In this document: positions 59,253 to 59,471 of the stretch, piece after piece
How positions within the stretch are numbered: the first letter of the stretch is position 1
Layout of the letters: the number at the start of each line of letters is the position of its first letter
Translations under genes and position numbers: made by a program
Assembly: GCA_022844045.1 (NCBI GenBank)
Contig: JALHMM010000020.1
Span: 1 to 64,000 of the forward strand
Reading direction: 5' to 3'
From: Reyranellaceae bacterium
GTDB lineage: Bacteria; Pseudomonadota; Alphaproteobacteria; Reyranellales; Reyranellaceae
Length of the DNA: 64,000 bases
The notes under the pieces: model-generated
The model's database searches: none
Seen by the model: only the letters and a program-made list of their open reading frames with translations
Told to the model about the DNA's origin: nothing

Positions 59253-59471
59253 ATGAAGGTCCGGATCGAATACTGCAGCGGTTGAGGCTACAAGCCCCAG
59301 GCCCTCCGTGTGAGGGAATTGCTTGCCCGGTCCGGGCACACCGACGTTACCCTGACGCCCGGCAAGTCGGGCCAGTTCGACATCACGGTCGACGGAACGC
59401 TGGCCTACACGCGTTCGAAGACCGGCCGCTTCCCGACGGACGACGAGATCGACGCCCTCGCCGGGACCTGA
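59253..59471 (+). CDS. Probable SelW/Rdx-family selenoprotein; in-frame TGA at 59283-59285 read as Sec (CSGU)
   Basis: MKVRIEYCSG(U)GYKPQALRVRELLARSGHTDVTLTPGKSGQFDITVDGTLAYTRSKTGRFPTDDEIDALAGT; RBS aaaggaag. Confidence 0.87.
59291..59325 (+). promoter_or_regulatory. SECIS-like stem-loop downstream of the UGA
   Basis: caagc...gcttg outer stem, ccctc-cgtgt-gaggg inner stem; apical loop begins 22 nt after the UGA. Confidence 0.7.

What the first reader, a model, noticed from the sequence alone, without database searches (positions are those of the whole stretch)
59253..59471. Probable SelW-like selenoprotein hidden by an in-frame TGA
The ORF track stops at 59285 (..RIEYCSG*). Continuing in frame gives a 72-aa protein with TGA exactly at the second position of the CxxC/CxxU redox motif (Y-C-S-G-U-G-Y-K) typical of SelW/Rdx proteins, and the frame continues as plausible coding sequence to TGA 59469-59471. 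A hairpin at 59291-59325 (stems caagc/gcttg and ccctc/gaggg, apical loop 22 nt after UGA) fits the bacterial SECIS position. Standard annotation would miss or truncate this gene.
Basis: partly seen in the sequence, partly recalled or inferred. Interest (0 to 1): 0.93.

Follow-up and report, generated by a model that had tools for sequence, protein, structure and literature searches.

The report
Genuine SelW-like selenoprotein missed by annotation
A small bacterial redox protein gene almost certainly uses an in-frame TGA to insert the rare amino acid selenocysteine, so standard gene finders truncate it; it is a well-supported but ordinary new member of the known SelW-like selenoprotein family.

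Summary
Frame 59253-59471 encodes MKVRIEYCSGUGYK..., 72 aa, with TGA at 59283-59285 in a CxxU motif. Read through, it matches Pfam Rdx and NCBIfam CXXU_selWTH above cut-off, and its AlphaFold model matches SelW/Rdx crystal structures. All 55 homologues in the window's order, plus 26 from other Alphaproteobacteria, have TGA at this exact codon, while their terminal stops vary. More distant relatives have TGC there. Outside the order, selB occurs in 24 of 26 TGA genomes but 0-1 of 17 genomes with other homologues. A 5-bp hairpin (59302-59316, loop CGUGU, 21 nt after UGA) meets every constraint of the published bacterial SECIS model and is kept by compensatory changes across phyla. The window's genome has selB, tRNA-Sec and a second TGA-containing gene (formate dehydrogenase). 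selA and selD were not found in this 92% complete assembly, but selB sits 160 bp from a contig end and a congener carries selD, selA and selB within 6.5 kb. Databases mostly hold only the 50-53 aa tail. Verdict: a true selenoprotein gene by sequence evidence, new member of a known family.

The parts
59253..59471 (+). SelW-like (Rdx family) selenoprotein gene, 72 aa with one Sec; stop TGA 59469-59471
   Evidence: PF10262 61.1 bits (cut-off 22.6); TIGR02174 47.6 bits (cut-off 34.2); homologues in 55 of 76 genomes of the order, 62-96% identical
59283..59285 (+). Sec codon UGA (second position of the CxxU motif)
   Evidence: TGA in 81/81 close homologues; TGC in 10 distant homologues inspected; terminal stops of the same genes vary, 46 TGA / 25 TAG / 10 TAA
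59302..59316 (+). Bacterial SECIS core hairpin: 5-bp stem CCCUC/GAGGG, 5-nt loop CGUGU (59307-59311)
   Evidence: Covariation in three of five pairs; synonymous sites frozen; meets the bSECIS constraints quoted in PMC13188914
59291..59325 (+).
   Evidence: Folds in this sequence but is not in the consensus of homologues; genus-level only
59274..59285 (+). Redox motif C-S-G-U (Cys8 and Sec11)
   Evidence: Cys8 and the Cys/Sec11 column invariant in alignments A1 and A2
59310..59468 (+). The 53-aa fragment that databases hold, starting at a GTG inside the SECIS hairpin
   Evidence: P0005 (53 aa) and similar database proteins begin at this point

Best explanation
It is a real selenoprotein gene of the SelW-like (Rdx, PF10262) family. 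During translation the UGA at 59283-59285 is read as selenocysteine: SelB carrying Sec-tRNA(Sec) binds the small SECIS hairpin at 59302-59316 just downstream and delivers Sec to the ribosome. The product is a 72-residue thioredoxin-like protein whose Cys8 and Sec11 form a CxxU redox pair, most likely cycling between a selenol/thiol and a selenenylsulfide state with a cellular thiol donor. Gene, Sec codon, SECIS, SelB and tRNA-Sec, and fold are supported here by sequence evidence; actual Sec incorporation and the redox role are inferred, and the substrate is unknown.
For: Family: PF10262 and TIGR02174 above cut-off; AlphaFold model mean pLDDT 92.2, Foldseek top hits all Rdx/SelW proteins, e.g. 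2fa8, 2ojl, 3dex, 2p0g, TM 0.84-0.90, and mouse SelW 2npb TM 0.65; profile hits to the same entries. TGA conservation: 55/55 in the order and 26 close class members outside it; also TGA in Desulfobulbaceae and Verrucomicrobia relatives. Purifying selection after the TGA: dN 0.016 and 0.075 versus dS 0.20 and 0.35 against two congeners. SECIS: covariation; frozen codons GCC 55/55, CTC 55/55, CGT 49/55, GTG 55/55, AGG 50/55 although CTC, CGT and AGG are 27%, 10% and 7% of their families in window genes. Machinery: selB 466 bits, tRNA-Sec, formate dehydrogenase alpha-type gene with one in-frame TGA; selD, selA and selB clustered in congener G001. Co-occurrence with selB outside the order: 24/26 TGA genomes versus 0/16 or 1/17 genomes with other homologues, Fisher p about 1e-9 to 1e-8.
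Against: selA and selD were not found in the window's own assembly, which the contig break would explain but which is not proven. No direct protein evidence. One database protein, P0003, has Cys at this position (its contig was not inspected), so Sec may not be indispensable in the clade. NF041051, the best-scoring NCBIfam model, falls below its cut-off (74.2 versus 88).
Confidence: 0.97

Rival explanations
1. Sequencing error or a recent nonsense mutation in a Cys-form Rdx gene.
For: A single-base change would turn TGC or TGT into TGA; the genome is a draft assembly.
Against: The same TGA recurs in 81 genomes of many genera, and in other phyla, with purifying selection downstream.
Confidence: 0.01
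2. The true product is the 53-aa protein started at the GTG at 59310, as databases annotate it; the upstream part is not translated with it.
For: Most database entries are 50-53 aa.
Against: The GTG lies in the SECIS hairpin; the fragment lacks the first strand and the invariant CxxU motif; the upstream ten codons are conserved, with dN at or near zero against congeners.
Confidence: 0.01
3. TGA is read as another amino acid (for example Trp) by a changed genetic code or by non-specific read-through.
For: A JGI entry (P0007) shows W at this position, as translation by code 4 would give.
Against: The same genes end in TGA in 46 of 81 cases, so TGA is a working stop. Distant homologues carry Cys, not Trp. 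Presence tracks selB, and a SECIS is conserved.
Confidence: 0.01

Closest known systems
Bacterial SelW-like selenoproteins (SELENOW-like, PF10262, CxxU; Sargasso Sea and GOS surveys PMC1088965, PMC2398784; review PMC13188914)
   Same: Rdx family, CxxU motif with Sec at the second position, one Sec, bacterial SECIS with a G in the first two loop positions, commonly missed or truncated by annotation.
   Different: This one belongs to a Reyranella/Enhydrobacter/Vineibacter-group alphaproteobacterium; it is short (72 aa) and has its own loop sequence (CGUGU).
Campylobacter jejuni SelW (PMC11955535; epsilonproteobacterial survey PMC4607533)
   Same: Small Sec-containing SelW missed in genome annotation. 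Read-through past UGA is demonstrated there by Ribo-seq and proteomics.
   Different: About 80 aa and from a different class; NCBIfam NF041051 (SelTWH_Campy) scores this protein below its cut-off.
Cys-form Rdx proteins such as Agrobacterium Atu0228 (2fa8) and Streptomyces SAV_2001 (3dex)
   Same: Same fold and conserved YCxxC region.
   Different: Cys in place of Sec in the matched CxxC (alignments), and about 105 residues long. Their alphaproteobacterial relatives (YCTQCRWLLRA type) lack the hairpin.

Membership tests
SelW-like / Rdx selenoproteins | Match to the Rdx / SelT-SelW-SelH models above curated cut-off | tested here: met
   PF10262 61.1 vs 22.6 bits; TIGR02174 47.6 vs 34.2 bits
SelW-like / Rdx selenoproteins | CxxU (or CxxC) motif after the first strand in a thioredoxin-like fold | tested here: met
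   YCSGU; invariant columns C8 and C/U11; fold hits to SelW/Rdx structures
SelW-like / Rdx selenoproteins | In-frame UGA aligned with Cys of homologues | tested here: met
   TGA in 81 genomes; TGC in 10 distant homologues inspected
SelW-like / Rdx selenoproteins | Sec physically incorporated | not testable with these tools
   Needs 75Se labelling or MS; full-length translation is shown only for a Campylobacter relative (PMC11955535)
Bacterial SECIS element | Apical loop 3-9 nt, upper stem 4-16 bp, G in the first two loop positions, 16-37 nt from UGA, MFE at or below -7.5 kcal/mol (as given in PMC13188914) | tested here: met
   Loop CGUGU (5 nt, G second), stem 5 bp, spacer 21 nt, MFE -11.4 to -16.1 for 38-48 nt after the UGA
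Bacterial SECIS element | Structure conserved by compensatory change | tested here: met
   Three of five pairs covary, 98% of cells paired, 0/500 shuffles reach the covariation score
Sec-decoding organism | selB and tRNA-Sec (selC) in the genome | tested here: met
   selB G000:C85 466 bits; tRNA-Sec with tca anticodon
Sec-decoding organism | selA and selD in the genome | tested here: inconclusive
   Not found in the 91.9% complete assembly; selB lies 160 bp from a contig end, and congener G001 has selD, selA and selB within 6.5 kb

The most novel reading that the evidence does not exclude
In this alphaproteobacterial clade the SelW-like protein is nearly locked to selenocysteine: 55 of 76 genomes keep it as the TGA form, and none of the 21 without it has a detectable Cys version at the search threshold (five loci examined carry no remnant). 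The gene is lost rather than converted to Cys, which would mean its chemistry needs Sec and not just a thiol.
Probability: 0.4. Interest if true: 0.35.

Novelty: new member of a known kind. Interest (0 to 1): 0.22.

Why it matters
It corrects a gene that automatic annotation mostly truncates to a 50-53 aa tail without its active site, and it adds a conserved SelW-like selenoprotein in Alphaproteobacteria, where a 2006 survey of sequenced genomes listed formate dehydrogenase as the only selenoprotein (PMC1794560). The many close homologues with compensatory stem changes also make a clean natural data set for what SelB tolerates in a SECIS hairpin.

Tried and rejected
Rfam scan of the window: no family reached threshold. 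The neighbouring aldo/keto reductase was tested as a functional partner because it sits next to the gene in most related genomes; it is also present in genomes that lack the gene, so this is shared synteny and not evidence of function. The sox cluster next to the gene in the window is not conserved beside it in most relatives. No remnants of the gene were found beside the reductase in five genomes that lack it. Three further 'tRNA-Sec' hits in the genome are tRNA-Ser. A lower stem pairing around the UGA was considered; it is not in the consensus fold. A family scan of the formate dehydrogenase failed on frame coordinates and was not repeated.

Full report
What is there. The frame at 59253-59471 (+) reads MKVRIEYCSGUGYKPQALRVRELLARSGHTDVTLTPGKSGQFDITVDGTLAYTRSKTGRFPTDDEIDALAGT, with TGA at 59283-59285 and a TGA stop at 59469-59471. 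An AGGA-like ribosome-binding stretch precedes the ATG (seen directly in the sequence). A single promoter-like match lies at 59115-59143 (consensus match only).

Chance. At 66.9% GC a 61-codon open stretch after a stop is expected in about 24% of cases, so the frame by itself is weak evidence. The protein is not: read through, it matches Pfam Rdx at 61.1 bits against a cut-off of 22.6 and NCBIfam CXXU_selWTH at 47.6 against 34.2.

Conservation of the TGA. In the window's order, 55 of 76 genomes (the window's own included) have the gene; the others are 62-96% identical to it, and every one has a single TGA at this codon (read out). Across Alphaproteobacteria, another 26 genomes outside the order have TGA, and ten more distant relatives inspected have TGC. 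Named genera that carry the TGA form include Reyranella, Enhydrobacter and Vineibacter; Desulfobulbaceae and Verrucomicrobia relatives also have it. The terminal stops of the same 81 genes are 46 TGA, 25 TAG and 10 TAA, so the fixed internal TGA is not a by-product of stop-codon preference. After the TGA, dN is well below dS against congeners (0.016 vs 0.200 and 0.075 vs 0.354).

The SECIS. Only the small upper hairpin is conserved: CCCUC/GAGGG with loop CGUGU, 59302-59316. On 30 diverse sequences (alignment A3), 98% of stem cells pair against 43-55% when the partner is slid; 20 cells show changes on both sides against 4.3 in shuffles; and the covariation score 0.480 was reached by 0 of 500 shuffles. 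RNAalifold finds the same five pairs and nothing else. Stem variants include CGCUC/GAGCG, CUCUC/GAGAG, CCCGC/GCGGG and CUCGC/GCGAG in Alphaproteobacteria, CCUCC/GGAGG in Desulfobulbaceae and CCGUC/GGCGG in Verrucomicrobia. These counts are of sequences, not events; on a weakly resolved protein tree of the 81 alphaproteobacterial sequences the second and fourth pairs change at least six and two times. In the order the five codons that form the hairpin are nearly frozen at synonymous sites, GCC 55/55, CTC 55/55, CGT 49/55, GTG 55/55, AGG 50/55, although CTC, CGT and AGG make up only 27%, 10% and 7% of Leu or Arg codons in eight window genes. In two sequences (L096, L101) the usual Leu codon CTC is CGC (Arg), with the stem pair kept as G-C. 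The element meets every constraint of the bacterial model quoted in PMC13188914: 5-nt loop, 5-bp stem, G at loop position 2 followed by U, 21-nt spacer, MFE between -11.4 and -16.1 kcal/mol. Cys-form relatives do not form it: 48% of cells pair at these positions.

The machinery. The genome has selB (466 bits) and tRNA-Sec with a TCA anticodon. selA and selD were not found. selB ends 160 bp before the contig end, on the side where selA lies in congeners: in G001, selD, selA and selB occupy C16:85523-91975. I read the gap as incomplete assembly (91.9% complete). A formate dehydrogenase alpha-type gene in the same genome also has one in-frame TGA, at a V-U-H-G motif. Outside the order, selB is found in 24 of 26 genomes with the TGA form and in none of 16 with other homologues (1 of 17 if one genome with a TAA-containing homologue and a partial selB is counted; one of the 16 matches does not reach the Sec position), Fisher p about 1e-9 to 1e-8. 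Inside the order nearly all genomes have selB whether or not they have this gene, so the test there is uninformative.

The protein. AlphaFold gives a confident model (mean pLDDT 92.2, pTM 0.81) of the beta-alpha-beta-beta-beta-alpha kind. Foldseek's 23 matches at E <= 0.001 are all SelW/Rdx-family structures, including mouse SelW and MIEN1. The function of bacterial SelW proteins is not established; the CxxU pair and the fold point to thiol redox chemistry (PMC1088965 infers the same from the motif). The redox partner and substrate here are unknown. The aldo/keto reductase neighbour is shared synteny and not a demonstrated partner.

Annotation. Of the database relatives listed, most are 50-54 aa fragments that begin after the Sec codon, and those read out start at or just after a GTG inside the SECIS. 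Some JGI entries already call them 'predicted Rdx family selenoprotein'. P0007 shows W at the Sec position, as code 4 would give; P0003 shows C and may be a true Cys form, unverified.

Verdict. [quoted passage not shown] The modest new point is the wide, nearly Cys-free retention in this alphaproteobacterial group.

Noticed in passing
57813-59060 (-): SoxX-like and SoxA domains appear fused in one reading frame (TIGR04485 and TIGR04484 both above cut-off), within a sox cluster with SoxY, SoxZ, SoxB and SoxC.
   Followed up: no
L019 / G000:C85:23175-28563: tRNA-Sec lies about 3.4 kb downstream of selB, with a long ORF between them that looks by eye like a radical-SAM / NAD-epimerase fusion (not searched).
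   Followed up: no
G001:C16:85523-86428 and many other genomes: selD matches lie in long frames of about 740-800 aa in most of the order, suggesting a fused second domain; a smaller group has a stand-alone selD in frames of about 355-400 aa.
   Followed up: no
L022, L023, L033, L034, L119: Vineibacter-group genomes carry a C-A mismatch in the middle of the SECIS stem (GAAGG instead of GAGGG), with all other stem positions kept.
   Followed up: partly
L020 6006-6083: In congener G001 the aldo/keto reductase next to the gene is reduced to a 26-aa remnant.
   Followed up: no
L209-L213: Genomes lacking the gene keep the neighbouring reductase but show no remnant of the selenoprotein gene beside it.
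   Followed up: yes
59280-59282 and homologues: The codon before the UGA ends in T in 49 of 55 genomes of the order (GCT 42, GGT 7), although GCT is under 4% of Ala codons in the window genes counted.
   Followed up: no
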